A stretch of 56,615 nt of DNA from Betaproteobacteria bacterium (GTDB lineage Bacteria; Pseudomonadota; Gammaproteobacteria; Burkholderiales; Casimicrobiaceae): the NCBI GenBank assembly GCA_027492485.1, contig JAPUER010000051.1, positions 1 through 56,615 on the forward strand, in the 5' to 3' direction. Made by a program: the position numbers and the translations under genes. Shown piece by piece: positions 7,851 through 56,061 of the stretch. The notes beneath the pieces were generated by a model. The model had not been told where the DNA came from. It did no database searches and saw only the letters and a program-made list of their open reading frames with translations. The first letter of the stretch is position 1, and each line of letters opens with the position of its first letter.

Positions 7851-7969
7851 CAGCTTTTTTCATTAAGCCGCTTTTGCATTGGGCTCAGCGCCGCAAAAGC
7901 CGTAAAGTCGACTTTGCGTAAAAACCGAGCTTTTTCCCATATCGGATAACGCTTTGACGAAAAAGATGA
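7851..7969. repeat. Dispersed long palindrome, copy A
   Basis: A 119-base imperfect palindrome running from CAGCTTTTTTC to GACGAAAAAGATG. Its centre, AAAGTCGACTTT (7904-7915), coincides with the midpoint of the element. The right arm (CCCATATCGGATAACGCTTTG) closely matches that of copy F. It separates the SDR stop from the gntR start. Confidence 0.8.
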
Positions 7970-8044
7970 TAGTGCGCCAAACGCTGGAACTGTGGCCGTT
8001 CTCCGCATCGTGCCGACGCCGGAAAGACCGAACCGGAGGTCGCA

Positions 8045-8818
8045 CTACTTGGCGCCGTAGCCGCCGTCGACGAACAGCGTGTGCCCGGTGACGAAGGCGC
8101 TGGCGTCCGACGCCAGAAAGATCGCGGCGCCGTGAAAATCCGTCGGCACGCCGTTGCGGCCGAGCATGGTGGCCGCCGCGTGCCGTTCGGCAAAGCCAGG
8201 CACGCTGTTCACCGCCTGCTCGGTCAGTGGGGTGACGACGAAGCCCGGCGCCAGCGCGTTGCAGGTGATGCCGTCGCGGCCGTAGTGCTCGGCAGTCGAG
8301 CGCGTCAGCGATACGATGCCGCCCTTGCTGATGCCGTAGACGCCGCTGTTGTTGAACGCGCGGAACGACTGTTGCGAGGCAATATTGACGATGCGGCCCC
8401 AGCCCTTTGCCTGCATCGCGGGCGTCAGCGCGCGGATCAGCGCCAACGGCGCTTCGAGATTGAGCGCGAGGGTGGCGCGGATGTCGTCGTCGCTGAGCGC
8501 CGGCAGCGGCTTGCGGATGTTGTTGGCGGCGGCGTTGACCAGAATATCCGGCGCCCCGAACGCCGCATTGATTGCGTCGATGGCGCGGGTTCGCACCGCC
8601 TCGTCGCCAAGGTCGGCGGCCACGGCCTTCGCCGCGATGCCCTCGGCGGCGAACTCGCGCACCGTGCGCTCCAGCGCATCCGTGCCACGCGCAACGAGCA
8701 CCAGCCGGGCGCCTTGCGCGCCCATCGCATACGCCATCGCGCGGCCGATGCCGGAACTGCCGCCAGTCACCACCGCGATGCGGTGGTCGAGGCGGAACAG
8801 GTGGGCGAGCGATTGCAT
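8045..8818 (-). CDS. SDR-family oxidoreductase
   Basis: About 257 residues from the ATG at 8818 (a TTG at 8833 is the alternative). It is a classical short-chain dehydrogenase: TGGSSGIG cofactor loop, NAAAN at the end of strand 4, a catalytic serine in NIASQQS and the YxxxK pair in YGISK. APGFVVTPLT and FVDGGYGAK complete the fold. It resembles gluconate 5-dehydrogenase-type enzymes acting on polyols or sugar acids with NAD(P). It begins 27 bases after the lyase large subunit. In a sulfonate pathway it could oxidise dihydroxypropanesulfonate, as HpsO does. In a sugar-acid pathway it would act on a keto-acid. I cannot decide between these. Confidence 0.88.
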   Translation of the reverse strand: MQSLAHLFRLDHRIAVVTGGSSGIGRAMAYAMGAQGARLVLVARGTDALERTVREFAAEGIAAKAVAADLGDEAVRTRAIDAINAAFGAPDILVNAAANNIRKPLPALSDDDIRATLALNLEAPLALIRALTPAMQAKGWGRIVNIASQQSFRAFNNSGVYGISKGGIVSLTRSTAEHYGRDGITCNALAPGFVVTPLTEQAVNSVPGFAERHAAATMLGRNGVPTDFHGAAIFLASDASAFVTGHTLFVDGGYGAK

Positions 8819-8845
8819 GCGGCCCTGCGTCAAAAAAACGCCCGA

Positions 8846-10015
8846 CTACGCCGATTCGTACAAGCGCGTCAGCACGAACTCGCGATGGCCGAGCGCTTCT
8901 GCCGAGGTCAGGCGGCCGTTGATGGTGCGCATCATGCAGTCGAGCAGCGCGTCGCCGGCATCGCTCATCGTCATTTCGCGCCGCAGCAGGCCGGAGGTGT
9001 CGACGTCGATGTGTTCGCTCATCGTGCGCACCGTTTTCGGGTTCGCGCAGATCTTGATCACCGGCAGGATCGGGTTGCCGATCACATTGCCCTGGCCGGT
9101 CGGGAAGAAGTGCACCACGTAGCCGGCGGCGGCGCACAGCGTCACCATCTCGGCGGCCGCGGACGAAGAATCCATGAACCACAGACCCGAACCGGTCGGC
9201 GCTTCGGCCTTGTCGAGCACGCCGTCGATTTTGCAGGTGCGGCCGATCTTCTGGATGTTGCCGAGCGCCTTTTCCTCGATGGTGGTCAGACCGCCCGCGA
9301 TGTTGCCTTTGGTCGGCTGCGAATCTGAGAGGTCGCTCGTCTTGTGCCGTTCGATCATCGCCTGATAGCGGTCGAACATGGTCATGAACTCCTTCCACAC
9401 CTTCGGCGTGCGGCAGCGCGCTTCGAGCAGCTTTTCGCCGCCGGTGATTTCGGAGGTTTCACCGAACAACAGCGTCGTCTTCAGCGGATAGAGCTTGTCG
9501 AACGCGTTGCCGACCGTCGGGTTGGCGCCGCAGCCGGACGTGGTGTCGGATTCGCCGCACTTGGTGGAAATCCAGAGATCGCTGATTGGACATTCGACGC
9601 GATGCAGCTCGCTCGCGTCCTGCAAAAATTTCTTGGCGGCGGCGGAGGCGCGGCGAATCGTTTCATGATCGCCATGCCCCTCGATGCCGAAACCCACCAC
9701 CGGCTTGCCGGTGGTAGCGATGCCGTCGACGACCTTTTGCGTCCAGCCGCCTTCGATGCCGATCACCACGACAGCGGCGACGTTCGGATTGCAGCCGGTG
9801 CCAATCAGCGTGCGGAAGTGCAGATCGAGGTCGGCGCCGAACTGCAGGCGGCCATAGGGATGCGGGATCGCCATCGTGCCCTTGATGTTGTGGGCAACGG
9901 CCTCGGCAGCGGCGTTCGACAGATCGTCCACCGGCAGGATGATGACGTGGTTGCGCACGCCGACGCGACCGTTCTCGCGACGGTAGCCCCAGAATTTCGT
10001 TTTCTTGCTGATCAT
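8846..10015 (-). CDS. suyB: UxaA-family lyase large subunit; probable sulfolactate sulfo-lyase beta subunit
   Basis: A 389-residue protein with the UxaA/altronate-dehydratase signature: [19 protein letters not shown] at the N-terminus, [27 protein letters not shown] and a C-terminal [10 protein letters not shown]. The family eliminates water or sulfite from acidic polyols or sulfonates. The same architecture is used by altronate dehydratase (fused or split) and by (R)-sulfolactate sulfo-lyase SuyB. I favour SuyB because the small subunit is a separate gene and two dehydrogenases able to interconvert sulfolactate enantiomers are divergent neighbours. The start at ATG 10015 fits the conserved N-terminus. 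It lies 7 bases after suyA. The altronate/galactarate alternative remains open. Confidence 0.6.
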
Positions 10016-10022
10016 GATTGGC

Positions 10023-10304
10023 TTACCACCGCTTGGTTTTGACGTTGTGGACATGCAGGTGTTCGCCCTTCCTGATCGGTGCGACCACTTTGCCGATGTC
10101 GACGCCATACTTGATGACGGTGTCGCCCACCTTGAAATCCTTCAGTGCCACCTTGTGGCCGATCGGGATGTCGTTTTTCAGTTCGACCTTGACTGTGGAG
10201 TCGGGCTCCATGATCCAGCCGGTTGCCTTGCTGCCCTTGGCGCAGCCCTCCACGACGACAACGCCAACGCCATCGCCCTTCTCATGCACAACAAAATGAA
10301 TCAT
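10023..10304 (-). CDS. suyA: SAF-domain small subunit of UxaA-type lyase; probable sulfolactate sulfo-lyase alpha subunit
   Basis: A 93-residue SAF-domain protein, the size of stand-alone UxaA N-terminal subunits and of SuyA. It has [12 protein letters not shown] and [23 protein letters not shown], and ends in [14 protein letters not shown] with the conserved histidines. It pairs with the large subunit 7 bases downstream, together releasing sulfite and pyruvate if the substrate is sulfolactate. It is the first gene of the minus-strand transcript and starts 77 bases from the palindromic operator at 10381-10407. No sulfite dehydrogenase or exporter is seen nearby. Confidence 0.6.
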
Positions 10305-10380
10305 CGTCTTTCCTCATCCGCCGCGCGCAGCGCTGCTTTCAGGCCACCGGCGGCGATTTGTGTCACAACATCGATATTCT

Positions 10381-10407
10381 AAGTCATATAGATGATATAG
10401 ATGACTT
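10381..10407. promoter_or_regulatory. Palindromic operator between divergent suyAB-like and slcC-comC-like genes
   Basis: A 27-base near-perfect palindrome with outer arms AAGTCAT and ATGACTT and matching inner bases (11 of 13 pairs). It also contains a tandem ATATAGATG repeat. A possible -10 (TAGAAT, 10411-10416) for the rightward genes abuts it. It is in the right position to control both transcripts; the GntR/UTRA protein is the obvious candidate binder. Confidence 0.6.
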
Positions 10408-10454
10408 GCGTAGAATACAAATTGAACCTCACCATTGCGCCAATTGCCCATCCC

Positions 10455-11387
10455 ATGCGAATAGTCATTTCCGAGTTCATGGACGAAGCTGCGGTCGACA
10501 CGTTGCGACAGCACTTCGGCGCCGCTGCCGTCCACTACGACGCCAGTCTGGTCGACAACCCCGCCGCGCTGGCGGCGGCGGTGGCCGATTGCGACGCCTT
10601 CATCGTGCGCAACCGCACCCAGGTGCGCGGCGCGCTGCTCGCGGCCTGTGCCAAGGTACGCGTGGTGGGTCGCCTCGGCGTCGGACTCGACAACATCGAC
10701 GTCGCCGCCTGTGCGGCGCGCGGCATTGGCGTGATCCCGGCCACCGGCGCCAATGCGCTGGCGGTGGCCGAATACGTGATCGGCACCGCCATGCTGCTGC
10801 GCCGGGCGAGCTATCTGAGCACGGCGGAGGTCGCCCGCGGCAAGTGGCCGCGCAACCGGCTGTCGGCCGGGCGCGAGACCGCCGGCGCGATCATGGGGCT
10901 GATCGGCTTTGGCTCGATCGGCCAATTGACAGCCCGTCTGGCGCGCGCCTTGGGCATGCAGCTGATTGCCTATGACCCGGCGCTGCCGGCAACGCATTCG
11001 GCGTGGCAGGAGATCGGCGTACAGGCGCGAACGCTGGAGCAAGTGACCGCCGAGGCCGATGTCATCAGCCTGCATGTGCCGCTGCTCGACAGTACGCGCA
11101 AGCTGTTCGACGCCGGGCGCATTGCGGCGATGAAACCCGGCGCCATCCTCATCAACACGTCGCGGGGTGGCATCGTGGACGAAGCGGCGGTGGTGGCGGC
11201 ATTGCGCAGCGGCGCGCTGGGCGGTGCGGCGCTCGATGTGTTCGAGCAGGAGCCGCTCCCGGCGCAGGCCAATTGGGCCGGGTGCCCGAATCTCGTGCTG
11301 ACGCCGCATATTGCCGGTGTTTCGTTCGAGGCCAACATCCGCGTGTCGTCGATGATCGCCGCAGCAGTGATCGACGCGTTGAAGTAA
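10455..11387 (+). CDS. slcC: D-2-hydroxyacid dehydrogenase; probable (S)-sulfolactate dehydrogenase
   Basis: A 310-residue member of the SerA/phosphoglycerate dehydrogenase family. The NAD loop is IGFGSIGQ (150-157), the catalytic arginine lies in TSRGGIVDE (Arg 237), with Glu 266 in DVFEQEP and His 285 in TPHIAG. It oxidises or reduces 2-hydroxyacids with NAD. In known sulfolactate degraders an enzyme of this family (SlcC) oxidises (S)-sulfolactate to sulfopyruvate and an Ldh-family partner (ComC) reduces it to the (R) form for SuyAB. The same pair is found here next to a SuyAB-like lyase. The ATG at 10455 is preferred over upstream in-frame starts that lack homologous sequence. Confidence 0.65.
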   Translation: MRIVISEFMDEAAVDTLRQHFGAAAVHYDASLVDNPAALAAAVADCDAFIVRNRTQVRGALLAACAKVRVVGRLGVGLDNIDVAACAARGIGVIPATGANALAVAEYVIGTAMLLRRASYLSTAEVARGKWPRNRLSAGRETAGAIMGLIGFGSIGQLTARLARALGMQLIAYDPALPATHSAWQEIGVQARTLEQVTAEADVISLHVPLLDSTRKLFDAGRIAAMKPGAILINTSRGGIVDEAAVVAALRSGALGGAALDVFEQEPLPAQANWAGCPNLVLTPHIAGVSFEANIRVSSMIAAAVIDALK

Positions 11388-11405
11388 GCACTTGCAGGAA
11401 CAAAC

Positions 11406-12410
11406 ATGGCACTGATTTCAATCGCGGACGCCGAAGCGCTGGCCGCACGCGCGCTGGAAGCCGCCGGCGCGTCGCCCACCGCAGCGCGGGCCACCGCCCA
11501 CGCGCTGGTGTACGCCGAGGCGCAAGGCACGGTATCGCACGGTTTGTCGCGGGTGGCGCAATACGCCGGCCACATGGGCGCCGGGCGGGTGAACGGCAAG
11601 GCGACAGCCTCGGTGCGGCGCGAACACGGCGCCACCTTGGTCGTCGATGCTGGCGACGGGCTGGCGTTTCCCGCCTGTGCGCTGGCAATCGAGCGCGCTA
11701 TCGGCAAGGCGCGTGAGCATGGCGTCGCGGTGGCCGCGGTGACTGACAGTTATCACTTCGGTGCCGCGATCTATCACCTCGAAGCCGTTGCCGCGGCCGG
11801 CATGGTTGGCCTGGCGTTTTCCAATTCACCGGCCGCCATCAACGCCTGGGGCGGCAAACGGCCGCTGTTCGGCACCAATCCGATCGCGGCGATCTTCCCG
11901 CGTAGCGACGCCGATCCGCTGGCGATCGATCTCGCGCTCTCGGAAGTCGCACGCGGCAAGCTGATGGTCGCGGCGAAGGAGGGCAGGGCGATGCCGCCAG
12001 GCTGGGCGCTCGATCAGGACGGGCAACCGACCACCGACCCGGCGCGCGGGCTCAAGGGCAGCATGGCGCCTGCCGGCGGCGTCAAGGGGGCGATGCTGGC
12101 GTTGACGGTCGAGTTGCTGGTGACCGCATTCACCGGCGCGCATTTCGGCTTCGAGGCGGATTCGTTCTTCGAGGTGCCGGGCAACACGCCGAAAATTGGC
12201 CAGCTATTCCTGGTGATCGATCCCGCCGCGATGGGCGGCGCCGACGTCTTCGCCGAGCGCATCGAGACCCTGGTCGCCGCGATGCTTGCCGACGATGGTG
12301 TGCGCCTGCCCGGCGCGCGCCGCTACGCGCTGGCGCGCAAGGCGGCGAGCGAGGGCCTGAATGTCGCCGACGCCACGCTCGCACAGATTCGCAAGCTGGC
12401 CGGCGAGTAA
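11406..12410 (+). CDS. comC: Ldh-family (malate/L-lactate dehydrogenase 2) oxidoreductase; probable (R)-sulfolactate dehydrogenase
   Basis: A 334-residue protein of the Ldh/Mdh2 fold, unrelated to classical lactate dehydrogenases. Family marks are SHGLSRV near residue 45, the DSYHFGAA segment with the catalytic histidine near 117, and GTNPIAAIFP with DLALSEVARGK. It uses NAD(P) to interconvert 2-oxo- and 2-hydroxyacids. It begins 18 bases after the slcC-like gene and is certainly co-transcribed. ComC reduces sulfopyruvate to (R)-sulfolactate; malate, ureidoglycolate or plain lactate are alternatives if the lyase is not SuyAB. It converges on the DUF1501 gene with 26 bases between and no visible terminator. 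Confidence 0.65.
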   Translation: MALISIADAEALAARALEAAGASPTAARATAHALVYAEAQGTVSHGLSRVAQYAGHMGAGRVNGKATASVRREHGATLVVDAGDGLAFPACALAIERAIGKAREHGVAVAAVTDSYHFGAAIYHLEAVAAAGMVGLAFSNSPAAINAWGGKRPLFGTNPIAAIFPRSDADPLAIDLALSEVARGKLMVAAKEGRAMPPGWALDQDGQPTTDPARGLKGSMAPAGGVKGAMLALTVELLVTAFTGAHFGFEADSFFEVPGNTPKIGQLFLVIDPAAMGGADVFAERIETLVAAMLADDGVRLPGARRYALARKAASEGLNVADATLAQIRKLAGE

Positions 12411-12436
12411 ACGCCGACCAGTCTGCGTCTCGCCGC

Positions 12437-13792
12437 CTACACGAAGCCGAGGTTCTTCACCGGGAACGCGGCGAGGTTGGGCAGCACGGTGTTCATCTGC
12501 GCATCGCTGACGCCGAACCAGCTTGCCAGCGTTGCGGCGTATTGATCGACCGAGGTCGACGGCAGCCAGCGACCCTCGCTGCTGACGTCGTCCGGCCCGG
12601 TGAGCGCGAGCGTCGGGAAGGTGCCGTACATGGCGCCGCCTTTCACTGCGCCACCCATCACGAAGTGGTGATTGCCCCAGGCGTGATCGGAGCCGCCGCC
12701 CGCCGCGGGCTTGAAGGTGCGGCCAAAGTCGGACAGGGTGAACGAGGTGACCTTGTCGGAAACGCCGAGCGCCACGGTCGCGTCGTAGAACGATTTCATC
12801 GCGTCGCCGACCTGCGTCAGCAGATTGACCTGGGTATTCAATTGGCCGGTGTGCGTATCGAAGCCGCCGAGCGAGACAAAGAACACCTGGCGTTTGACGC
12901 CGAACGTATCGCGGGCGGCGATCAGCTTTGCAACCTGCTGCAACTGCAACGCCAACGAGTTTCCGGTCGTGTTGAACAGCGATTGCACGGTCGTGTTGGT
13001 CGCGCTGATGACCGGGTTGACGACGGTGGACAGGTTGATGGCATTGGCCAGACCATCGGCCGTTTCCATGACCAGCGTGTGATCGCGACCTTCGCCCAGC
13101 AGCGCGGCGAGCGCTTGCTGCCGCGCTCGGGCCGCGTTGCTGCTGCCGGCGTCGGAGAGTCCGAAAGTGCCGCTGGAGGGGACGGTGAGCGCACTGGTGG
13201 CACTGCCCTGGGCGAACAACACGTTGCCGGCGATGGACGTCGACACCGGCATGACGGCGCTGCCGTTCATCGACTTCACCGCATCGGCAAGGCGTCCACC
13301 CCAGCCGGTGCGCGACGGCTCGTCGGAGAACGTGGTTTGCCACTGCGCCTGCTGGTCGGCATGCGAAAAGAGCTGATACGGATTGTCGGTGCCGGCGAGG
13401 TAGGCGGCTTTCGTCGTAGGGCGATTGAGTGGCCCCACATTGGCCAGGACGGCAAGTTGACCGCTGGCGAACAACGGATGTACTTTGGCCAGCGACGGAT
13501 GCAGGCCAAACACGCGGCTCGTATTCTTCGGCTGAATCGACAGCAATTCCGACTGCGCGATGTTGATGCCGCTCGACGTTCCGCGCACGGCTGAATACTC
13601 GGCGTATCCGGCGGTGTCGGCACCGATGACGACGTTGTTGCCGTCGTTGCCGCCAAACAGGAAGATGCACACCAGCGCCTTGTAGTCGCCGGGTACCGAC
13701 TGCGCCCATGCGGGTGAGACACCGAAACGGGAGAGCGAAGCGACGGCGCCGGCGCTGAGCGCCTGCAGGAATTCACGGCGTGTGTTTTTCAT
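12437..13792 (-). CDS. DUF1501 secreted protein with Tat signal
   Basis: A 451-residue DUF1501 protein, alkaline-phosphatase-like superfamily. The N-terminus NTRREFLQALSAGAVASL is a classic twin-arginine signal ending near PAWAQ. Conserved features are IFLFGGNDGNN, a GGFDTH motif and FTLSDFGRTF followed by SDHAWGNHHF. Its function is unknown. DUF1501 and DUF1800 genes are regularly paired and exported together, as here: it follows the DUF1800 gene by 14 bases. Folded export via Tat suggests a bound cofactor or metal. Confidence 0.88.
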   Translation of the reverse strand: MKNTRREFLQALSAGAVASLSRFGVSPAWAQSVPGDYKALVCIFLFGGNDGNNVVIGADTAGYAEYSAVRGTSSGINIAQSELLSIQPKNTSRVFGLHPSLAKVHPLFASGQLAVLANVGPLNRPTTKAAYLAGTDNPYQLFSHADQQAQWQTTFSDEPSRTGWGGRLADAVKSMNGSAVMPVSTSIAGNVLFAQGSATSALTVPSSGTFGLSDAGSSNAARARQQALAALLGEGRDHTLVMETADGLANAINLSTVVNPVISATNTTVQSLFNTTGNSLALQLQQVAKLIAARDTFGVKRQVFFVSLGGFDTHTGQLNTQVNLLTQVGDAMKSFYDATVALGVSDKVTSFTLSDFGRTFKPAAGGGSDHAWGNHHFVMGGAVKGGAMYGTFPTLALTGPDDVSSEGRWLPSTSVDQYAATLASWFGVSDAQMNTVLPNLAAFPVKNLGFV

Positions 13793-13806
13793 GATGCGTG
13801 CTCCGT

Positions 13807-15939: not shown

Positions 15940-16130
15940 GAGGACTCCCCTTTATTGTGGTGAGCATTGGTCAATGCACAGTGTCGCGCAAAGGTGCACC
16001 GATGCGTCGCCGACAAACGTAACAAACTATTTCGCCCGTGCTGCCGCGATCGCAATGACGGGTCCACGGGTGCGGCGCCGGTCGCCCACAGCAAGCGCAA
16101 ATGCACCGTCGGCTACCACGGCCTGGCTAA

Positions 16131-16250
16131 CAGCTTTTATGCTGAAACCTTTATAAGTATTGGGTTTGAATGGCAATACAGATAAAAGTCGATAGTCCGA
16201 TTGGCCATGAACAATCAATGCGCGGTTGGCGCCCAAAATGCGGCAAGCGC
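16131..16250. repeat. Dispersed long palindrome, degenerate copy B
   Basis: The left end (CAGCTTTTATGCTGAAA), the TTGGG step and the central AAAAGTCGA (16184-16192) follow the family. The right half is decayed, keeping only GCGCCCAAAATGCGGC. It lies in the 497-base region between the divergent DUF1800 gene and mraZ. Confidence 0.5.
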
Positions 16251-16400
16251 GTAATTCGCGCAACACTTTGATAGTTGTGCATAACTCGTTCATTTTGCGT
16301 TGATTTCTATCTGTAAAACCGTTGAAAAACGTGCCCTAATCCATTGAAAAATAAGGATTTCTTCAGATTGATCAGAAAATTGTCAACTTGTGAGTAAAAG

Positions 16401-16425
16401 TGGGGATTCGCGGCAAAAGGTGGGA
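16401..16425 (+). promoter_or_regulatory. MraZ boxes upstream of mraZ
   Basis: TGGGG at 16401, a degenerate CGGCA at 16411 and TGGGA at 16421 repeat every 10 bases. This is the spacing of the TGGGN boxes through which MraZ represses its own dcw promoter. A GATAAT (16424-16429) overlaps the last box and could be the -10 element. Confidence 0.65.
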
Positions 16426-16436
16426 TAATCTTTTGC

Positions 16437-16871: not shown

Positions 16872-16881
16872 GTGGCACCCG

Positions 16882-18113: not shown

Positions 18114-18125
18114 GTGGTGTCCAGC

Positions 18126-33368: not shown

Positions 33369-33492
33369 CAACAGCTTTTCGCTGAAAGCGCCGATTCCAT
33401 TGGGCGTAGACCGCAAATAGTGAAAAAGTCGACTTTTTGCTTTTTTGCCGCCTACGCCCATACGTAATGGGCGCCAACGGAAAAAGCTGTTG
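33369..33492. repeat. Dispersed long palindrome, copy C
   Basis: The most symmetric copy. CAACAGCTTTT and AAAAGCTGTTG are perfect terminal inverted repeats, and the centre AAAAAGTCGACTTTTT (33423-33438) has its midpoint exactly at the element midpoint. ATTGGGCGTA is mirrored by TACGCCCAT. It sits between convergent lpxC and dciA. Confidence 0.85.
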
Positions 33493-39140: not shown

Positions 39141-39244
39141 TTTTTGACGCAGATTGCCGCAGATTCGACGCAGATGACCGCAGATTCATGAATGAAAAAA
39201 TCTGCGTGAATCCGCGTGAAATCAGCGTTAATCTGCGTCAAAAA
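39141..39244. repeat. AATCTGCG-type palindromic repeat
   Basis: A 104-base element whose ends are a perfect 15-base inverted pair (TTTTTGACGCAGATT and AATCTGCGTCAAAAA). Inside are further copies of CGCAGATT and its complement around ATTCATGAAT. It fills most of the argJ-DUF815 gap. A shorter relative is at 49796-49840. Confidence 0.75.
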
Positions 39245-40595: not shown

Positions 40596-40604
40596 CTGTC
40601 GTAT

Positions 40605-40721
40605 CAGCTTTTTCGTGAGAACGGCTTCCGATCTGGGCTCAGTAGCTCATTTGACGAAAAGTCGATAAATCGACTTTTCGCCGCTCTGGCCCAATGCAAC
40701 CGTCGTTTGACCGAAAAGCTG
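40605..40721. repeat. Dispersed long palindrome, copy D
   Basis: Ends TATCAGCTTTTTCG and CCGAAAAGCTGATG. The core is expanded to AAAAGTCGAT-AA-ATCGACTTTT-like symmetry (40657-40678). TGGGCTCAG matches copy A. It lies between convergent mutT and yacG, starting 10 bases after mutT. Confidence 0.8.
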
Positions 40722-40758
40722 ATGGTCGGCCGCGGGCGAAGAGTGCCTTGCGGCGAAC

Positions 40759-40944
40759 TCAGTCCGGCTTGGGCGAAACCGCCGGCTCGTAGTCCGGCGG
40801 CTCGGCGTTGCCGATGCGGTATTCCTCGTTCGCCCAGGCGCCCAGATCCATCTGCTTGCAGCGCTCGGAGCAAAACGGGCGGAAGCGGTTGTCGAGCGAC
40901 CACGGGACGGCTTTCTGGCAGCGGGGGCAGGCGACGGTTTTCAT
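40759..40944 (-). CDS. yacG: DNA gyrase inhibitor YacG
   Basis: 61 residues with the zinc ribbon CPRC (6 and 9) and CSERC (25 and 29), followed by [12 protein letters not shown], which is the YacG core. It binds GyrB and inhibits gyrase. In proteobacteria it is regularly next to zapD and coaE, as here. The gap to zapD is 21 bases. Confidence 0.93.
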
Positions 40945-43285: not shown

Positions 43286-43293
43286 GCGCGCCC

Positions 43294-44541: not shown

Positions 44542-44584
44542 GAACTAGTTCCTCTTCAAATGTTGCCGTGCGCCGGTGGTTCGA

Positions 44585-46300: not shown

Positions 46301-46463
46301 GAATTGAGCGTAATTTCAGGTAAGTTCGTCAGTGTGCCGCGTAAGCACTTGGTTGTAAAGCGAATTTTGCCCGACAGCGCCTGCTTTGTCGCATTCGGGC
46401 ACCTCGCTCCGACCGCCTAAAATCGAAAGCTTTCCCCGCACGAGCAAGTTTCTCGCCGCAGTC

Positions 46464-47849: not shown

Positions 47850-47863
47850 CGCTGTGCGGGCAT

Positions 47864-47980
47864 TGGCTTTTGACTGGATGCCTTATTCGATATGGGCTTG
47901 GCAGCCAATAAAGGAAAAGTCGACAGCGACCATTTTTGGCTGTCAACGCTTATAAAACGGACGTTCAAAGCAAAAAGCTG
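47864..47980. repeat. Dispersed long palindrome, copy E
   Basis: The left half (TGGCTTTTGAC...TTATTCGATATGGGC) matches copy F closely; the centre is AAAAGTCGAC (47915-47924); the right end is CAAAAAGCTG. The right half has drifted. It ends six bases before the ybiB start codon and so forms the whole ffh-ybiB gap. Confidence 0.75.
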
Positions 47981-47986
47981 ATCGCC

Positions 47987-48925
47987 TTGAACTTCACGCC
48001 AATCATCAAGGAAGTCGGCCGTGGCGCCCGCGGTGCGCGGGGCCTCGATGCGGCCACGGCGCGCGAGGCGTTCGCCGCGCTGCTCGCCGGCGGCGTCAGC
48101 GACGTCCAGCTCGGCGCCTGGTGGCTGGCGATGCGCATCAAGGGCGAAACGGCGGAGGAGCTGGCGGCATTCGTCGACGCCATGCAGGCGAGTCTGGCGT
48201 TTACGGTCGCTGCCGGCAGCGCGCCGGTGGCTGTGCTGCCCTGCTACAACGGCGCGCGGCAGCTTGCCAATCTGACACCGCTCCTCGCCTGGGCGCTGGC
48301 GCAGCGCGGCACCCGCGCGCTGCTGCATGGCGTGCGCGCCGACCCGACCCGCGTGACCACCTTCGAGCTGTTTCAGGCGCTGGGCTTTCCCGTTGCCGAA
48401 AGCGCTAATGACGCAGAGCACGCGCTCACGTCACGCGGCTTTGCCTTCGCGCCGATCGACGCGCTGCATCCGCCGCTGGCGGCGCTGCTGGCCAACCGCT
48501 GGCGCATCGGCGTGCGCTCGACGCCGCATACGGTGGTCAAGCTGCTGAACCCGCTCGTCGAGGCACCGCCGTCCACCACGGTGCGCGTGGTCGCCCTGAC
48601 CCACAGCGACTACATCGAACGCATGGGCGCGCATCTCGCCGCGCAGGGCGACGCCTGCGGCGTAGTGTTCCGCGGCTGCGAGGGTGAACCGGTATTGCAC
48701 CCCAAACGCACCGTTCCGGTGCCAATATTCCGCAACGGCGTGACGCTTATGCGCGAATGGCCCGGTGTGGCGACGCATGACCTGCCCGAGACTTGCGACA
48801 TCGCGACCACGGTCGCCTATATCGAGTCCGTCGTCTCCGGTCAGCGCGCGCTGCCGCCGTGGATCGACTGGCTGGCACGGGAAGTGCACGCTGCCACGCA
48901 TGAACACGCATCATCCGCCGGGTAA
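47987..48925 (+). CDS. ybiB: YbiB-type glycosyltransferase-fold DNA-binding protein
   Basis: About 312 residues of the anthranilate-phosphoribosyltransferase/nucleoside-phosphorylase fold. NFTPIIKEVGRG and GVSDVQLGAWWLAMRIKGET match YbiB, a TrpD2-type protein that binds nucleic acid rather than making tryptophan. I chose the TTG at 47987 because it gives the YbiB-like N-terminus; further upstream codons would be read from repeat copy E. It overlaps cobA by 26 bases. Confidence 0.8.
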   Translation: MNFTPIIKEVGRGARGARGLDAATAREAFAALLAGGVSDVQLGAWWLAMRIKGETAEELAAFVDAMQASLAFTVAAGSAPVAVLPCYNGARQLANLTPLLAWALAQRGTRALLHGVRADPTRVTTFELFQALGFPVAESANDAEHALTSRGFAFAPIDALHPPLAALLANRWRIGVRSTPHTVVKLLNPLVEAPPSTTVRVVALTHSDYIERMGAHLAAQGDACGVVFRGCEGEPVLHPKRTVPVPIFRNGVTLMREWPGVATHDLPETCDIATTVAYIESVVSGQRALPPWIDWLAREVHAATHEHASSAG

Positions 48926-49703: not shown

Positions 49704-49720
49704 ATCGGCAGCCGACCAAT

Positions 49721-49783
49721 GTGGGAGCGGCCTTGGCCGCGAATGCGTGCGCGTCGACTTTCGCGGCCAAGGCCGCTCCTACA
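49721..49783. repeat. REP/BIME-like hairpin between cobA and cbiX
   Basis: GTGGGAGCGGCCTTGGCCGC and its near-perfect reverse complement (one mismatch in 22) around an 18-base loop. It resembles the REP sequences tied to RAYT transposases. Confidence 0.85.
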
Positions 49784-49795
49784 GGCCGGAAACCG

Positions 49796-49840
49796 AATCT
49801 GCGCTAATCTGCGCAATCCGCGCAATCTGCGTCAAAAAAT
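49796..49840. repeat. Short relative of the AATCTGCG repeat
   Basis: Tandem AATCTGCGCT/AATCTGCGC/AATCCGCGC/AATCTGCGT units ending in GTCAAAAAA, as in the right half of the element at 39141-39244. It ends 11 bases before cbiX. Confidence 0.6.
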
Positions 49841-49851
49841 CCGGTCGCCGC

Positions 49852-50223
49852 ATGAGCAGCCACACCGCCATCCTCTTTTTCGCCCACGGCTCGCGCGACG
49901 CCAACTGGCGGCGGCCGTTCGACGCCATCCTCGCCGACTTTCGCGGCATGCACGCGACCAAGCTTGCCGAGCTGGCATTCCTCGAATTCATGCAGCCCGA
50001 TTTCGCGGCCGCGACGAAAGCGCTGGTCGAGCAGGGCGCCACGCTGATTCGCGTCATTCCGCTGTTCCTCGCCGAAGGCGGCCACACCCGGCGCGACTTG
50101 ACGGCGCTGATCGAGGCGGCGCAAACGGCGCATCCGTCCGTGCTGTTTACCGTTGCCCCGGCGATCGGCGAGGTCGACTCGATTCGCTCGGCGATTTCAA
50201 GCTGGGTGGCGACGCAGTTGTAG
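49852..50223 (+). CDS. cbiX: Short-form sirohydrochlorin chelatase CbiX
   Basis: 123 residues, the size of the small homodimeric CbiX. ILFFAHGSRD with the metal-binding His 12, and IRVIPLFLAEGGHTRRDL with the second histidine, are the family motifs. It inserts cobalt or iron into sirohydrochlorin, the expected step after cobA. The stop codon TAG is the first triplet of the REP hairpin arm. Confidence 0.9.
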   Translation: MSSHTAILFFAHGSRDANWRRPFDAILADFRGMHATKLAELAFLEFMQPDFAAATKALVEQGATLIRVIPLFLAEGGHTRRDLTALIEAAQTAHPSVLFTVAPAIGEVDSIRSAISSWVATQL

Positions 50224-50288
50224 GAGCGGCTTGCCGCGACCCCGTCTTGCGACGGGCCATCGATGTGTCGCGGCAAGCCGCTCCTACA
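50219..50288. repeat. REP/BIME-like hairpin that carries the stop codons of cbiX and eda
   Basis: Perfect 22-base arms (TGTAGGAGCGGCTTGCCGCG and complement) around a 26-base loop. The TAG near each end is the stop of cbiX on the plus strand and of eda on the minus strand. It probably also ends both transcripts or protects their 3' ends. Confidence 0.9.
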
Positions 50289-50922
50289 TTGGCCGTGCGG
50301 CCCGCACCACGGCCATCAGCCGCTTCGCGCGTTCGGTAATTTCCGTCCACTTGCGTTCGGCGATTAGTGCGCGGGTCGCCACCGCCGAACTGCCGAAGGC
50401 GGCCACGTTCGGGCACGCCAGATAGGCGGCAATGTCGTCGTCCCGAATGCCGCCGGTCGGACAGAAACTTGCCTGCGGGATCGGCCCATGAATGGCCTTG
50501 AGCCACGCCGGACCACCGTACAGCGACGCCGGAAAAAACTTCAGCGTATGCCAGCCGTCGTCGAGCGCGGCGAGCACTTCCGACGGCGTCACGCTGCCGG
50601 GCAATAGCGGCAGTCCTGCGTCGCGACAGGCACGGCCGATTGCATGCGTGTAGCCGGGCGAGACGGCGAACTGCGCGCCGGCATCTACGCAGGCCGCGAC
50701 CTGATCGCCGTGCGTCACGGTGCCAACGCCAGTCATCATCGGCACGCCCGACTTCACAATGCCTGCAATCGAGGGCAGACCGGCGTCGGTACGCAAGGTC
50801 ACCTCGATGCAGCCGATACCGCCGGCCAGCAGTGCCTCGGACAGTGGCACCGCGTCGTCCGCGTTGTCGATTTCGATGACCGGCACGTAGCCCAGGCGGC
50901 GGAGGGTGTGATTCAAGTCCAT
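50284..50922 (-). CDS. eda: 2-dehydro-3-deoxy-phosphogluconate aldolase
   Basis: 212 residues. VIEIDNADDAVPLSEALLAGGIGCIEVTLRT, with the catalytic Glu 40, PGYTHAIGRA, PGSVTPSE and the Schiff-base Lys 128 in HTLKFFPAS define KDPG/KHG aldolase. It splits KDPG to pyruvate and glyceraldehyde 3-phosphate. It lies 38 bases after edd on the same strand. Its stop codon lies in the REP arm. Confidence 0.95.
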   Translation of the reverse strand: MDLNHTLRRLGYVPVIEIDNADDAVPLSEALLAGGIGCIEVTLRTDAGLPSIAGIVKSGVPMMTGVGTVTHGDQVAACVDAGAQFAVSPGYTHAIGRACRDAGLPLLPGSVTPSEVLAALDDGWHTLKFFPASLYGGPAWLKAIHGPIPQASFCPTGGIRDDDIAAYLACPNVAAFGSSAVATRALIAERKWTEITERAKRLMAVVRAARPM

Positions 50923-50936
50923 GTGGCAGAGTGCAA

Positions 50937-50956
50937 GTAGTTTTAAGTCCGTAACG
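50937..50956. promoter_or_regulatory. Second HexR-like element between edd and eda
   Basis: GTAGTTTTA...CCGTAACG resembles the element at 52806-52833 (GTAGTTTTA..CGTAAC). It lies in the 38-base edd-eda gap, so eda may have its own regulated start. The match is modest. Confidence 0.3.
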
Positions 50957-50960
50957 AAGC

Positions 50961-52802
50961 TCAGCGAAAGAACACCGACGCACCGGCGTTGGCGTCCGCC
51001 ACATTGTCGCGAAACGTTGCAAAAAGTTCGCGTCCCCAGCCCGTTTCTGCCGGCGGCGCGGTAGCGGGCGTTCGCGCTGCCAGAACGTCGGCGTCGACGT
51101 GCAGTGTGAGTCTGCCCTGTTCGCAATCGACGGTCACCACGTCACCGTCCTGCACGCGCGCGAGCGCGCCGTCGGCTGCGGCTTCGGGCGTGACGTGAAT
51201 GGCGGCAGGCACACGCCCCGACGCGCCCGACATGCGGCCATCGGTGACCAGCGCCACCTTGAGGCCACGATCGAGCAACACCGAAAGTGCCGGCGTCAAC
51301 TGGTGCAGTTCCGGCATGCCGCAGGCGCGCGGCCCCTGAAAACGCACGACGACCACGGCGTCGCGCTGGAAGCGGTTCGCCTTGAATGCAGCGATCACCC
51401 CGGCCTGGGTGTCGAAGACGTGCGCCGGCGCGGTGATCGTGCGATGTTCAGGCGCAACCGCAGAGACTTTAACCACCGCTTCGCCCAGATTGCCATTGAG
51501 CACGCGCAGACCACCTTCCGCGCTGAATGGCTCGCCGACTGGGCGCAACACCGTGCTGTCGCCGGACTGCGCTGGCGCCGGCTCGTAGGCCAGCACGCCA
51601 GACGCATCGGCAGTCGCGGCGAGCCGCTGCGTGTAGTGCCGCAAGCCGCGTCCCATGACGGTCTCCACATCGTCATGCAGCAGCCCGGCCGCGAGCAGTT
51701 CGCGCAACAGGAAGGCCGTGCCGCCGACGCGATCGAAGTCATTCACATCCGCTTCACCGTTCGGGTAGAGCCGCGTCAAGAGCGGCGTCACCCGCGACAG
51801 CGCATCGATGTCCTGCCAGGTCAATGCAAACCCGGCGGCGCGGGCAATCGCCACCCAGTGCATCGTGTGATTGGTCGAGCCGCCGGTCGCGAGCAGTGCG
51901 ACGATGGCGTTGACCAGCACTTTCTCGTCGACCCATTCGCCGAGGCCTGCGCCAGGGGCCGCGCCTGCCTTCGCGAGCGCGGCGACGCGAGCGCCGGCCG
52001 CCCGCGTGAGCAGCGCGCGACGCGGGTCGTGCGGCTGCACAAACGCGGCGCCGGGGAGCATCAGGCCCATCGCTTCCAGCAGCATCTGGTTGCTGTTGGC
52101 GGTGCCGTAGAACGTACAGGTGCCCTCGCTGTGATACGCGTCCATCTCGGCCTCGAGCAGCGCGGAGGGCGCCACCTTGCCTTGCGCGTGCAGTTTGCGC
52201 ACGTTCGCCTTTTCCTTGTTCGACAGGCCGCTCGGCATCGGACCGGCGGGCACGAAGATCGCGGGCAAATGGCCGAACGAGAGCGCGCCGATCAGCAGGC
52301 CCGGCACGATCTTGTCGCAGACGCCGAGCAGCAGCGCGCCGTCGTAGAGGTCGTGCGACAGAGCAATCGCCGTCGACATCGCGATCACGTCGCGCGAAAA
52401 CAGCGACAGCTCCATGCCTGGCTGACCCTGCGTCACGCCGTCGCACATAGCCGGCACGCCGCCGGCAAACTGCGCCACGGCGCCGTGCCGCCGCGCCTCG
52501 TCCTTGACGATCGCCGGATAGTCGGCCAGTGGCTGATGAGCGGACAGCACATCGTTGTAGGCCGAGACGATGGCCAGCATCGGCACTGGCTCGCTCACCA
52601 CGCGCAGCTTGTCGCCATTGGGCAAGGCCGCGTAGCCGTGGGCGAGATTGGCGGCGCTCAGCCGCTTTCGCGCGAGACGGCCGGCGCGTTGCCGGGCGAC
52701 GGTGGCAATGTAGGCCGCACGGCGCGCAGCGCTGCGCGCGGCAATGGCGGCGGTGATCGCTGCGACCGTCGGATGGATGTTGTCTGGTGCTGACGAGGTC
52801 AT
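50961..52802 (-). CDS. edd: Phosphogluconate dehydratase
   Basis: 613 residues of the IlvD/Edd family. [65 protein letters not shown] and [20 protein letters not shown] mark Edd and its iron-sulfur cysteines. It dehydrates 6-phosphogluconate to KDPG, the first dedicated Entner-Doudoroff step. The start at ATG 52802 follows an operator-like palindrome by 3 bases. It is operonic with eda. Confidence 0.96.
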
Positions 52803-52805
52803 GTC

Positions 52806-52833
52806 TGTAGTTTTACAACGTAACAAAACTACA
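52806..52833. promoter_or_regulatory. HexR-like operator of edd-eda
   Basis: A 28-base inverted repeat with 9-base arms TGTAGTTTT and AAAACTACA. Each half with its flank resembles the HexR site (TGTARTTTTAYTACA type). HexR, which senses KDPG, commonly represses edd-eda in proteobacteria. It overlaps the edd ribosome-binding and promoter region. No hexR gene is in the window. Confidence 0.5.
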
Positions 52834-52857
52834 AACAACAACGAAATCACCGGAAAA

Positions 52858-52900
52858 GGCGCCCGTCTGCAAAATCGAAGGAAATGGCGCCCGTCTACAA
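52858..52900. repeat. 15-base direct repeats upstream of tRNA-Ser
   Basis: GGCGCCCGTCTGCAA (52858-52872) and GGCGCCCGTCTACAA (52886-52900) lie 28 bases apart, start to start. The TACAAT (52896-52901) overlapping the second copy may be the -10 element of the tRNA gene. Confidence 0.5.
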
Positions 52901-52910
52901 TTTAAGGCTT

Positions 52911-52998
52911 GGAAGCGTGGCCGAGCGGTTTAAGGCACCGGTCTTGAAAACCGGCGACGGGCAACCGTCCGTGAGTTCGAATCTCACCGCTTCCGCCA
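52911..52998 (+). tRNA. tRNA-Ser (TGA)
   Basis: The acceptor stem GGAAGCG/CGCTTCC, a long variable arm, GTTCGAATC in the T loop and encoded GCCA are present. The anticodon loop CTTGAAA gives anticodon TGA (52945-52947). Long variable arm and anticodon agree on a class II serine tRNA. Confidence 0.96.
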
Positions 52999-53020
52999 AT
53001 TTTCGGGGTTGATTGACCAA

Positions 53021-53149
53021 CAGCTTTTCGTCGAAAGCCCTATCCAATTGGGGCTAGCTTGGCTTTTTAGCCAAATATCGACTTTTCCGGTTTTTTGAAG
53101 CCAAGCCCAAGCCAGTTGCGGGTTACCGGCCCAAATCGTGCCGAAGCTG
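53021..53149. repeat. Dispersed long palindrome, copy G
   Basis: Starts CAACAGCTTTTCGTCGAAAGC and ends GCCGAAGCTGAT. The off-centre core is ATATCGACTTTT, with an extra inner hairpin (TTGGCTTTTTAGCCAA). At 129 bases it is slightly longer than the others. It begins 22 bases after tRNA-Ser and ends 20 bases before the convergent gene. Confidence 0.7.
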
Positions 53150-53168
53150 ATCGATAAATGACGGTGCG

Positions 53169-55835
53169 CTACGGCGCGATTGCGGCCAGCGGTTTGGAAT
53201 CGGTCGCGCTGCTCGTGCAAAACGCCACGCCTTCGTCGGCCCAGCCGGCGGCTTTCATTTCGCTGCGCCGCGCCTCGCTGACGACATAGCGGTGGTTGCC
53301 GTTGTTGCTGGCCGATTGCTGGTTGAACAGGCGATACACGGGCATTGGCAGCGCGCTCGGGCAGCCGCCGGCGCCGGTGGCGACACCTGCGCGAAAGTCA
53401 TAGCCTTCGTAGCGCAGGGCGGCGAAGCGTTTGAGCAGCGTGCAATCGCCGTCGCGGCCATAAAAATGGCTGTTGCTGCCGCCGGCTTCCGGTGCGGCGT
53501 AAAAGCGGCAGACCGGCAGCGTCAGGGCGTCGTCGCTGACGCGCACCAGCGCCGTGCTGGCGGCGAACTGCATTCCGGTGCGCGAAAAGCTGGTCGGCAT
53601 GGCGTCGAGCAGGGCGATTTCAGCGGGGCGACCGGTGATGAAGAAACGCTTGCTGTCGCGCGAGTAATACTCGACGACGGTACGCGCTTCGTTGCGGGCC
53701 GTCGCGCTGAAGCGCCTGGGCGCGCCACCGTATTGCCACGACAACACCAGAGTCACCCCGTCGCTGCCGCGCTCAACGGCATTCGCGTCACAGAGGTAAG
53801 TCTCGTCGCTGCTCCAGTCCGGGTCTTCGAGACCGGTTTCCTTGTTGAAGCGTCGCACGACAGCGGCCGTGAAGCGACCGCTGCGGCAAACGTAGATGTG
53901 GCTGGCGGTCTGGTACGCAAAGCCAGTGAACTGCTGACCGTATTCGCCGGCAACGTGGGTGGGCCAGGTGCCGTCGACGGTCATGTTGGGGGGCAGCAGG
54001 CGAAAGAGTACGGTGCCGCTCTGCGATCCCACCGGCGGCATCCCCCATGCGCTGCCGATCGCGTAGATGGCTCCGTCGCGAGCGTCACGCAGCATACTGC
54101 CGCCGCCGCTCGAGTATCCGGGCCCTCGGGCTAACGCTTCCGGCGTTGGCAGGGTGGCACCGCTGCCGTCGCGCGACAAACGCATGACAGCCTTCGATGA
54201 ACCGTTCATGTAGCCGTCTTCCCAAATGAAATAAACGCCTTCCGCGCCGGCATCAAGGATGCGGTAGATACCGTCGCGGCCGAACTGGCCATAGCGCGCG
54301 GCGTCCATCACCGGCCAGCTCGGCTGGCTCGCCCAATCCGGGTCGAGCGTGCCATCGGCGCGAAAGCGCGCCAGTGAGCGGCGCGCAACGCCGTCGATCG
54401 CCGAGTACGCGCCGCCGATGAACAGCGTGCCGTCACTGACAGGGAGAATTTTGTAAATGTCGCCCGCGGCCACCGGATGCCAACTGGTGTCGAGCGTGCC
54501 GTCCGCCTTGAATCGCGCCAGCCTGGCCTGCTGCCCGGAGGTCGAGTTGCTGCCGACGATCAGGCGTCCCTGTGCATCGACGGCCAGCGCCGCCACGCTG
54601 CCGTCGACGCTGGGCGTCCACGCCGGATCGGGCCGGAACGAGGCGTCGACGCGCATCAGATTGCGATACAGCTTGCCGTCGAACCAGTAGAGAAAATTGC
54701 CGCCGAGCACGTAACCATCGTTCCAGCGGATGCTTGTACTTATCGACGCGACCACGCCGACGCGCGCGCTGCCTGCCAGATCTCCGCTGGCGTCGCTGCG
54801 TTTGGAGTCGAGCAGCATCCAGCGCCCGTCGTCGGCGCCCGCCATTACCATCCCGTCCGCCCCGATGCCGCCGAACGCATAGGGCGCCTCGCGTTGACTC
54901 ATTTGCACGCCGGTAATCCGGTCGAGCGTTGTCAGATGGGAAGCCTGCGGTGTACCCGTATCGGCGCGGACGATTACGATGCGGTCGCCAACCACGCGCA
55001 TGCTTGGCGCCACGCCGGCAATGAGCTCGAGCACCGGGTTCCATGCCGCGTCGACGCTGCCGTCGCTGCGCAGGCGCAACAGGTTGGCGGTCTTGCCGCC
55101 GACCGATACCGCTTCGCCAAGCAGATAAATGCTGCCGTCGGTGTCGGTCGCCAGATTCGCCAGGCGGCCGCCGACGGTGTGCGACCACAGTGCAGTATTG
55201 TCGGCGTTGCGCTTGCGTAGCGCGTAGGAGGTCACGGAGTTGGCGGCAGCCGGAGCGACGTCGGTCTCGAAGGAAAGGGCCGTGCCGTCGCCTAGCGGCA
55301 GCAGACGCGGTTCCAAGCCGGTGCCCGTCGCCCAGTAGATCGCGTCACGCGCCGGCATCAGCGCGATACCGCCGAATTCGACCGGCACGATCTGTCCCGC
55401 ACTTTCGCGCGTCAGTAGGTACCAGCGTTTCTCGTATGTCGGGCTGTTTTTCACGTAGGCCTGCACAATCGGCGTGCCGTCGGGCGCGAGATATTGGTCG
55501 ACGATCTGAAAATCGCTTGGCAGACGCCAACTGGTGTCGGGAAGCCCGGCATCGTTGATCCGGAACAGCCACTGCGGCATGGCCACGCCCTCGACGCTGC
55601 AACTGTAGTAGCAATTCCGAAAGTAGGTCCAGCCGCGTGCCGTGTCGCGCAGTACCGGGGCATTGACCACCCCTTCTACCTGGAACAGCCCGGTGTTGTC
55701 CGGTTCCAGCAAGGTGACGACCGCGCTGGCGGGCGAGACCAAGGCAAGGTACAAGGCCGCGGCGGCAAGCATTGCCGACAGCGGGCGCGGGCGTCGACGG
55801 CCAAAGCACACGGAACACAATGTGCTGAATGTCAT
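53169..55835 (-). CDS. Secreted Delta-60-repeat beta-propeller protein with C-terminal DUF5648-like domain
   Basis: 888 residues. A basic N-terminus and hydrophobic segment (about 18-38, ending PASA) form a Sec signal. The long middle region contains Delta-60 (DUF5122) repeats, for example LARFKADGTLDTSWHP and SLARFRADGTLDPDW with LFIGGAYS between, which fold as a propeller. Residues about 715-885 are a DUF5648-like lectin-type domain (EYYSRDSKRFFITG, CRFYAAP..SNSHFYG, VYRLFNQQSASNNGNHRYV). Its function is unknown; a surface or extracellular binding role is likely. It is a single gene bounded by repeat copies G (3' side) and F (5' side). Confidence 0.75.
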   Translation of the reverse strand: MTFSTLCSVCFGRRRPRPLSAMLAAAALYLALVSPASAVVTLLEPDNTGLFQVEGVVNAPVLRDTARGWTYFRNCYYSCSVEGVAMPQWLFRINDAGLPDTSWRLPSDFQIVDQYLAPDGTPIVQAYVKNSPTYEKRWYLLTRESAGQIVPVEFGGIALMPARDAIYWATGTGLEPRLLPLGDGTALSFETDVAPAAANSVTSYALRKRNADNTALWSHTVGGRLANLATDTDGSIYLLGEAVSVGGKTANLLRLRSDGSVDAAWNPVLELIAGVAPSMRVVGDRIVIVRADTGTPQASHLTTLDRITGVQMSQREAPYAFGGIGADGMVMAGADDGRWMLLDSKRSDASGDLAGSARVGVVASISTSIRWNDGYVLGGNFLYWFDGKLYRNLMRVDASFRPDPAWTPSVDGSVAALAVDAQGRLIVGSNSTSGQQARLARFKADGTLDTSWHPVAAGDIYKILPVSDGTLFIGGAYSAIDGVARRSLARFRADGTLDPDWASQPSWPVMDAARYGQFGRDGIYRILDAGAEGVYFIWEDGYMNGSSKAVMRLSRDGSGATLPTPEALARGPGYSSGGGSMLRDARDGAIYAIGSAWGMPPVGSQSGTVLFRLLPPNMTVDGTWPTHVAGEYGQQFTGFAYQTASHIYVCRSGRFTAAVVRRFNKETGLEDPDWSSDETYLCDANAVERGSDGVTLVLSWQYGGAPRRFSATARNEARTVVEYYSRDSKRFFITGRPAEIALLDAMPTSFSRTGMQFAASTALVRVSDDALTLPVCRFYAAPEAGGSNSHFYGRDGDCTLLKRFAALRYEGYDFRAGVATGAGGCPSALPMPVYRLFNQQSASNNGNHRYVVSEARRSEMKAAGWADEGVAFCTSSATDSKPLAAIAP

Positions 55836-55943
55836 GAGATGGATCGCTCCTGAGAGACCGGCGCTACAAACGGCGGCGCCGGTTAGTGCGAGCCTACCGC
55901 GTGGTCATGACAAAGTCATCGGGGTCGCGCGCTAGAGTATTTA

Positions 55944-56061
55944 TGGCTTTTGACGAAAAGCGTTATTCGATAAGGGCAGCGCGGCCAATAACTGCCAAAG
56001 TCGACTTTTGCACAAAACGGCGTCCCAGCCCATGTTCGATAACGCTTTGCCGAAAAAGATG
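55944..56061. repeat. Dispersed long palindrome, copy F
   Basis: 118 bases from TGGCTTTTGACG to CCGAAAAAGATG, with CAAAGTCGACTTTTG at the exact midpoint. GCGTTATTCGATAAGGGC on the left mirrors GCCCATGTTCGATAACGC on the right. It lies between the divergent large secreted protein and the tRNA operon promoter. Confidence 0.85.

What the first reader, a model, noticed from the sequence alone, without database searches (positions are those of the whole stretch)
7851..56061. A family of dispersed ~118-bp palindromes with a centred AAAGTCGACTTT core
Seven intergenic copies (A 7851, B 16131, C 33369, D 40605, E 47864, F 55944, G 53021). They share ends like CAGCTTTTTCG/CGAAAAAGCTG, inner TATTCGATATGGGC/GCCCAT..TCGATAACGC blocks and, in most, a SalI-like palindromic centre. 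In A, C and F the centre lies within about half a base of the element midpoint, so the whole unit can fold into one long stem. They are far longer than REP units and encode nothing. Sequences differ between copies while the symmetry is kept, which suggests selection for structure or a MITE-like mobile unit. I do not recognise this as a described family.
Basis: partly seen in the sequence, partly recalled or inferred. Interest (0 to 1): 0.85.

Follow-up and report, generated by a model that had tools for sequence, protein, structure and literature searches.

The report
Evenly spaced long palindromic chromosome sites
A bacterial genus carries hundreds of 122-base mirror-symmetric DNA sites between its genes, about one every 11,000 bases and mostly at the same places in different species, which looks more like a built-in set of protein docking points for organising the chromosome than like jumping DNA or an RNA hairpin.

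Summary
The seven copies are real. They belong to a family with about 380 copies in this 4.1-Mb betaproteobacterial genome (extrapolated from 72 at E<0.1 in 777 kb; 0 at E<0.1 in the reversed control). A sequence model hits 16 of 17 genomes of the genus and 0 of 43 outside it. Each copy is ~122 bp, dyad-symmetric, with conserved islands at fixed spacing and near-random spacers.

The long-stem reading fails: arms of one copy match no better than arms from different copies (p=0.14), and RNAalifold finds no pairs. The MITE reading fails: no target duplication, and copies are as unlike each other as independent draws from the consensus. Yet 29 of 30 comparable copies sit at the orthologous place in a species ~82% identical in aligned DNA, with islands kept and spacers as diverged as the flanks. 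That implies selection on each copy.

Unexpectedly, copies are evenly spaced (mean 9.5-11.6 kb, close pairs depleted) in four data sets from three species. Best explanation: long composite protein-binding sites that anchor or insulate chromosomal domains. The protein is unknown. Gyrase-type 10.75-bp phasing is at most weak. No described family was recognised in Rfam (window scan) or in eight literature searches.

The parts
7849..7970 (.). Copy A, full element, exact core at 7904-7915; tandem gap between a GntR-type regulator gene (7070-7804, -) and an SDR-oxidoreductase gene (8045-8818, -)
   Evidence: orthologous element in G005
16124..16250 (.). Copy B, degenerate; only the left half (16124-16192) is matched; divergent gap upstream of mraZ
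Evidence: (E 0.013); G005 has a hit at the matching place.
33370..33491 (.). Copy C, full element, exact core at 33425-33436; just after lpxC
   Evidence: present in G005 and G015
40603..40723 (.). Copy D, full element with a longer centre; convergent gap between a NUDIX gene (+) and a yacG-like gene (-)
   Evidence: present in G005 and G015
47862..47982 (.). Copy E, full element with altered centre; between ffh and a ybiB-like gene
   Evidence: present in G005 and G015
53019..53139 (.). Copy G, full element with altered centre
   Evidence: present in G005
55942..56062 (.). Copy F, full element, exact core at 55997-56008
   Evidence: lies in a stretch that G005 lacks

Best explanation
Each copy is a ~122-bp composite, dyad-symmetric protein-binding site, probably filled by several subunits of a sequence-specific architectural protein, possibly with DNA bending. 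The sites stand between genes, close to gene 3' ends, about once per 10-11 kb. I think they work as chromosomal anchor or insulator sites that bound supercoil or transcription domains. Shown here: the family, its intergenic placement, retention at orthologous places with islands kept, even spacing, and absence of covariation. Inferred: that a protein binds, that it is one dedicated protein, and the domain-boundary function.
For: About 78 bits per copy against ~13 bits needed to mark 380 sites, as expected for several contacts per site. Several positions are defined only as A/T (-14 and -13: 100% W, A about equal to T) or G/C (-41: 98% S). Arms do not covary. Retention: 23 of 24 comparable C79 copies and 6 of 6 in the window have an element at the orthologous place in G005; 9 of 10 anchored G000 copies in G015. 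Ungapped identity of 22 orthologous pairs: islands 0.71, spacers 0.365, immediate flanks 0.348 (non-orthologous pairs 0.66, 0.30, 0.27), so spacers diverge like the surrounding intergenic DNA; in a neutral-decay simulation 2 of 88 copies stay detectable at 60% identity and 0 of 88 at 40%. Even spacing: G000 CV 0.63, 3 of 65 gaps <4 kb against 17.4 for random intergenic placement, p<=2e-4; held-out contigs CV 0.55-0.60, G005 0.71, G015 0.63, CV p<=0.014 against uniform placement. Median 30 bp to gene 3' ends against 85 bp to 5' ends, p=3e-5. The E. coli chromosome is said to form 400-500 supercoiled domains (PMC3820752, start of abstract in the listing), close to one per copy here.
Against: No binding protein identified; no expression, Hi-C or ChIP data. 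Even spacing could instead come from instability of close pairs. G016, in the same genus, has no hit, so not all members need it. The orthologue test is not clean everywhere: in 8 of the 23 C79 cases G005 carries 1.8-9.8 kb of extra DNA in the same interval, and one pair (C79:131401) is conserved in its spacers too, 0.80. The intergenic-placement null was run on the first G000 sample only.
Confidence: 0.5

Rival explanations
1. A REP/REPIN/ERIC-like mobile palindrome that spread by transposition and now sits passively between genes.
For: Intergenic, hundreds of copies, palindromic, near gene 3' ends. Three Y1 transposase hits in G000 and hits in 15 of 17 genus genomes. Some G005-only stretches carry elements.
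Against: No target duplication and no closely related copies. Most comparable copies at orthologous places with islands kept. Even spacing, whereas REPINs are described as randomly distributed in extragenic space (PMC3116915, abstract). G009 has 22 hits but no Y1 transposase hit. No covarying hairpin.
Confidence: 0.13
2. Strong DNA-gyrase (or topoisomerase IV) sites that load the enzyme at domain scale and downstream of genes.
For: The E. coli gyrase motif is a ~130-bp dyad with phased GC content (PMC6379681, passages). Position near 3' ends and one site per ~11 kb would suit it. The W/S profile has significant power at 9-9.9 bp over the whole element (p 0.001) and weak power at 10-11.25 bp in the wings (p 0.036) (band 9.5-11.5, p 0.002, block shuffle 0.019).
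Against: Reported wing period is 10.75 bp. Here the whole element has no excess at 10-11.25 bp (p 0.29) and the wings are dominated by ~7.5 bp. Of two general cleavage-domain preferences (-4G, -2A; PMC12324340, passages) the centre meets A but not G (my coordinate conversion). Restriction to one genus is odd for a universal enzyme.
Confidence: 0.13
3. Site-specific recombination or cassette-type sites; close pairs are deleted with the DNA between them, which leaves even spacing as a by-product.
For: Three single-site / pair-plus-cargo differences: window G-gene-F vs one element in G005, a pair in G005 vs C79:176685, a pair in G015 vs C53:131735. Site D is an apparent synteny breakpoint in five genomes.
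Against: Element-bearing intergenic regions are not significantly richer in large indels: 9 of 29 vs 16 of 87, p=0.19. Copies share only ~51% identity, too little for homologous exchange. No recombinase was looked for.
Confidence: 0.1
4. A bidirectional terminator or structured RNA element.
For: Near gene 3' ends; 17 of 32 convergent gaps of >=130 bp carry one.
Against: No covariation and no RNAalifold pairs; also in divergent gaps (14 of 55); no Rfam match above gathering score in the window other than tRNAs.
Confidence: 0.04

Closest known systems
REP / BIME / REPIN elements (RAYT-associated)
   Same: Hundreds of intergenic palindromic copies, here too close to gene 3' ends
   Different: Far longer, no covarying hairpin, evenly spaced, mostly fixed at orthologous places, no transposase partner shown
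ERIC (127 bp)
   Same: Similar length, imperfect palindrome, intergenic
   Different: [quoted passage not shown] here no stem is supported. No sequence comparison with ERIC was made.
E. coli gyrase motif / Mu SGS
   Same: ~130-bp dyad, degenerate alternation of A/T and G/C
   Different: 10.75-bp phasing absent or weak; base identities are also strongly conserved (centre, TTT, GGGC)
Dispersed chromosome-organisation sites such as matS/MatP, parS/ParB, SBS/SlmA (recalled)
   Same: Many palindromic sites read by one protein
   Different: Those sites are short and concentrated by region (recalled); these are ~122 bp and found along every large contig sampled

Membership tests
REP/REPIN (RAYT) | hairpin-forming inverted pair with pairing maintained | tested here: not met
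   arm identity 29.58 vs 29.11 permuted, p=0.14; local hairpins z between -1.0 and 1.2 with free offset, control pairs 2.1 and 0.4
REP/REPIN (RAYT) | associated RAYT gene | tested here: inconclusive
   3 Y1_Tnp hits in G000; none in G009, which has 22 element hits; DNA flanking the G000 hits was not read
REP/REPIN (RAYT) | random distribution in extragenic space | tested here: not met
   CV 0.63 vs 0.89 for random intergenic placement, p 2e-4
MITE | target-site duplication | tested here: not met
   longest shared direct word in flanks 4.25 vs 4.17 permuted, 88 copies
MITE | closely related copies and clean empty sites | tested here: not met
   mean pairwise identity 0.508 vs 0.513 for independent draws, maximum 0.70 vs 0.66; the one missing orthologue (C79:99658) is not a clean empty site
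ERIC | conserved long stem-loop | tested here: not met
ERIC | sequence identity to ERIC | not tested
   no ERIC sequence was compared
Gyrase strong site | 10-11 bp GC periodicity in the wings | tested here: inconclusive
   wings: 10-11.25 bp p 0.036 but dominant period ~7.5 bp; whole element 10-11.25 bp p 0.29
Gyrase strong site | cleavage by gyrase | not testable with these tools
   needs purified enzyme
Chromosome-organisation site array | bound by a dedicated protein | not testable with these tools
   no protein identified
Chromosome-organisation site array | copies maintained at orthologous places | tested here: met
   29 of 30 comparable in G005; 9 of 10 in G015

The most novel reading that the evidence does not exclude
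A genus-specific chromosome ruler: ~380 long composite sites, individually conserved, that divide the whole chromosome into ~11-kb domains through a dedicated, still unknown DNA-wrapping or bridging protein whose specificity has co-evolved with the site (centre GTCGAC in one clade, AT-rich TTCGAA-like in another).
Probability: 0.35. Interest if true: 0.95.

Novelty: new variant of a known kind. Interest (0 to 1): 0.8.

Why it matters
Bacterial supercoil domains of about 10 kb are usually thought to lack fixed, sequence-coded borders (recalled). A genus with hundreds of evenly spaced, individually conserved sites at that scale would make domain borders testable from sequence: the protein could be fished out with the site, and borders could be removed or moved one at a time.

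Tried and rejected
Long-stem and local-hairpin selection: rejected by permutation and RNAalifold. In one search single fixed offsets reach z 3.5 for one hairpin variant and 6.7 for a control pair, among many offsets tried. MITE: no target duplication, no related copies. Gyrase phasing: absent over the whole element at 10-11.25 bp, weak in the wings. Hot spot for gene gain/loss: not significant. RAYT partner: inconclusive. Column coupling is, in my reading, mostly 1-bp register shifts, apart from AA/TT coupling at -14/-13. Gapped identity of orthologue flanks was uninformative because random pairs score as high (0.786 vs 0.785), so one search repeated it ungapped. The clade-2 profile was trained on its own hits with long flanks, so its E-values are not independent evidence; only the G011 copies look clear. 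Literature: eight searches listed no paper that I recognised as describing this family; six papers were listed for the core string or search word, judged unrelated from titles and abstract starts only. Papers: passages of PMC6379681, PMC12324340, PMC12393610, PMC2267715, PMC3116915 and PMC10948358; listing and abstract start only for PMC3820752.
Full report
Observation. The core AAAGTCGACTTT occurs three times in the window against 0.07 expected and 41 times in the genome, with none for the reversed pattern. 39 of the 41 are element centres.

Family size. In 777 kb (contigs C79, C53, C58 and the window) nhmmer finds 77 elements at E<10, 72 at E<0.1; the reversed sequence gives 2 at E<10 and 0 at E<0.1. 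That extrapolates to about 380 per genome. The profile was built from 38 copies, some of which lie in the sample. The genome-wide model search scores at most 150 strand hits, so it gives no count. The model hits 16 of 17 genomes of the genus (not G016), 0 of 19 in other genera of the family and 0 of 24 in other families of the order (stricter filters, so weak or diverged relatives can be missed). The exact core is in 12 of 17 genus genomes and 0 of 47 others in the family; in some relatives the reversed control is also found once or twice.

Anatomy. Using 88 distinct copies (176 halves, ungapped and centre-anchored), a half reads, from outside to centre: two W, then CAGCTTTT, a spacer, AAA, a C/G-rich CSNC block, ATT, AATTGGGC, a spacer, GSC, AWWT, a spacer, AAAGTC and the dyad. 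Some positions are nearly invariant (centre, TTT, GGGC) and some are almost purely A/T or purely G/C. Total information is about 78 bits per element against 13.4 bits needed to mark 380 sites.

No structure. If the palindrome served as a stem, the two arms of one copy should match better than arms drawn from different copies. They do not: 29.58 of 60 against 29.11 (sd 0.44), p = 0.14; in the 31 most variable columns p = 0.10. The short hairpins inside each half do not covary when the offset is free (z between -1.0 and 1.2); single fixed offsets reach z 3.5 for one variant and 6.7 in a control pair. RNAalifold predicts no pair on 39 copies. The symmetry is that of a consensus, as for a dyad protein site.

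Not a recent mobile element. Flanks carry no direct repeat beyond chance (longest shared word 4.25 vs 4.17), and pairwise identity of copies (0.508) equals that of sequences drawn column by column from the consensus (0.513); the closest pair reaches 0.70 against 0.66 simulated. Two copies are themselves interrupted by another repeat.

Conservation in place. C79 is collinear with part of G005, which is held as one 4.47-Mb contig, at 82% identity in aligned parts. Of 25 C79 elements in the chain, 24 are comparable, and 23 of these have an element (E<1) in the same interval in G005; the one missing (99658) is not a clean empty site. The 25th lies in a stretch that G005 lacks. In 8 of the 23, G005 has 1.8-9.8 kb of extra DNA in that interval. 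In the window A, B, C, D, E and G have a partner; F lies in a stretch that G005 lacks. Conversely, G005 has two elements at collinear places without a G000 hit and several in G005-only stretches. In G015 (74% identity), 9 of 10 anchored G000 elements are present, and 10 of 12 anchored G015 elements have a G000 partner (two of the ten share one partner); one more was rearranged and 17 of 30 had no anchor in the G000 stretches held.

Selection in place. Ungapped identity over 22 well-centred orthologous pairs is 0.71 in islands, 0.365 in spacers and 0.348 in the 30 bp on either side, against 0.66, 0.30 and 0.27 for non-orthologous pairs. The first run with 25 pairs, three of them badly centred, gave 0.70 and 0.36 for islands and spacers. 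One pair (C79:131401) keeps its spacers at 0.80. So spacers diverge like the surrounding intergenic DNA while islands stay at consensus. In a simulation, neutral decay to 60% identity leaves 2 of 88 copies detectable. This points to selection on each copy. Copy-correction from other copies is disfavoured because copies share little spacer sequence.

Spacing. In G000 the 65 gaps between elements (hits closer than 400 bp merged) average 11.3 kb, CV 0.63; 3 are under 4 kb. Random choice among intergenic gaps gives CV 0.89 and 17.4 such gaps (p <= 2e-4); uniform placement gives 0.96 and 19.7. Held-out contigs C16 and C66: CV 0.55 with the profile of 88 copies (0.60 with the first profile), 5 gaps under 4 kb against 12.2 (11.6), p 0.0008 (0.003). 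G005: CV 0.71 (p 0.013), 2 against 10.3 (p 4e-4). G015 with its own profile (30 elements; 0 in its reversed control): CV 0.63 (p 0.006), 2 against 8.3 (p 0.002). The last three used the uniform null only. Several of the close pairs bracket species-specific cargo.

Place. Tandem 39, convergent 17, divergent 14 gaps in the sample; dividing by all gaps of 130 bp or more gives 39 of 132, 17 of 32 and 14 of 55 (some elements lie in shorter predicted gaps). Distance to gene 3' ends is 30 bp (median, n=56) and to 5' ends 85 bp (n=51), p = 3e-5. The gene calls come from a home-made Markov caller and are approximate.

Reading. These features fit a long composite protein-binding site repeated at about domain length, with insulator or anchor function. 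The strongest structural rival, gyrase wrapping, has about the right length and symmetry. Its reported 10.75-bp phasing (PMC6379681, passages) shows no excess over the whole element (10-11.25 bp, p 0.29) and only a weak one in the wings (p 0.036), where ~7.5 bp dominates; over the whole element the strongest period is 9.5 bp (p 0.001). A recombination role is kept alive by element-cargo-element differences and by apparent breakpoints at site D, but element-bearing regions are not significantly richer in indels (9 of 29 vs 16 of 87, p = 0.19).

Diverged clade. In G011, G014, G007 and G002 weak hits show similar outer blocks with an altered, AT-rich centre, which suggests that site and reader have changed together. 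This is provisional.

Limits.

Noticed in passing
window 53014-56068: Copies G and F bracket a gene with DUF5122 beta-propeller and DUF5648 matches that G005 lacks; G005 has a single element there. Similar pairs: G005 C1:1623118 and 1624961, and G015:C72 202309 and 204791.
   Followed up: partly
window ~40600 (copy D): The interval is an apparent synteny breakpoint in G002, G007, G011, G012 and G013 (in G013 one side is near a contig end); in G011 weak half-element hits lie at both ends on one contig.
   Followed up: partly
G000 C79:196056-196386 and C58:8008-8383: Two elements are split near the centre by another inverted repeat (CCCTCCCC...GGGGAGGG type) of 200-250 bp; in C58 AGTCGACT stands on both sides, like a target duplication.
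   Followed up: no
window 39141-39244: Separate 46-bp inverted repeat built of CGCAGATT-like units.
   Followed up: no
window ~49720-49800: REP-like GGAGCGGCCTTGGCCGCG palindrome, apparently a different repeat family.
   Followed up: no
L164, L166, L176, L227, L228: Diverged elements in a second group of genomes of the genus with AT-rich, TTCGAA-like centres and, in G011, GCCTTATGAAATAAGGC-like blocks.
   Followed up: partly
window 40759-40944 and 47936-48925: The genes next to copies D and E match YacG (named gyrase inhibitor in Pfam) and the DNA-binding protein YbiB (NCBIfam); probably coincidence.
   Followed up: no
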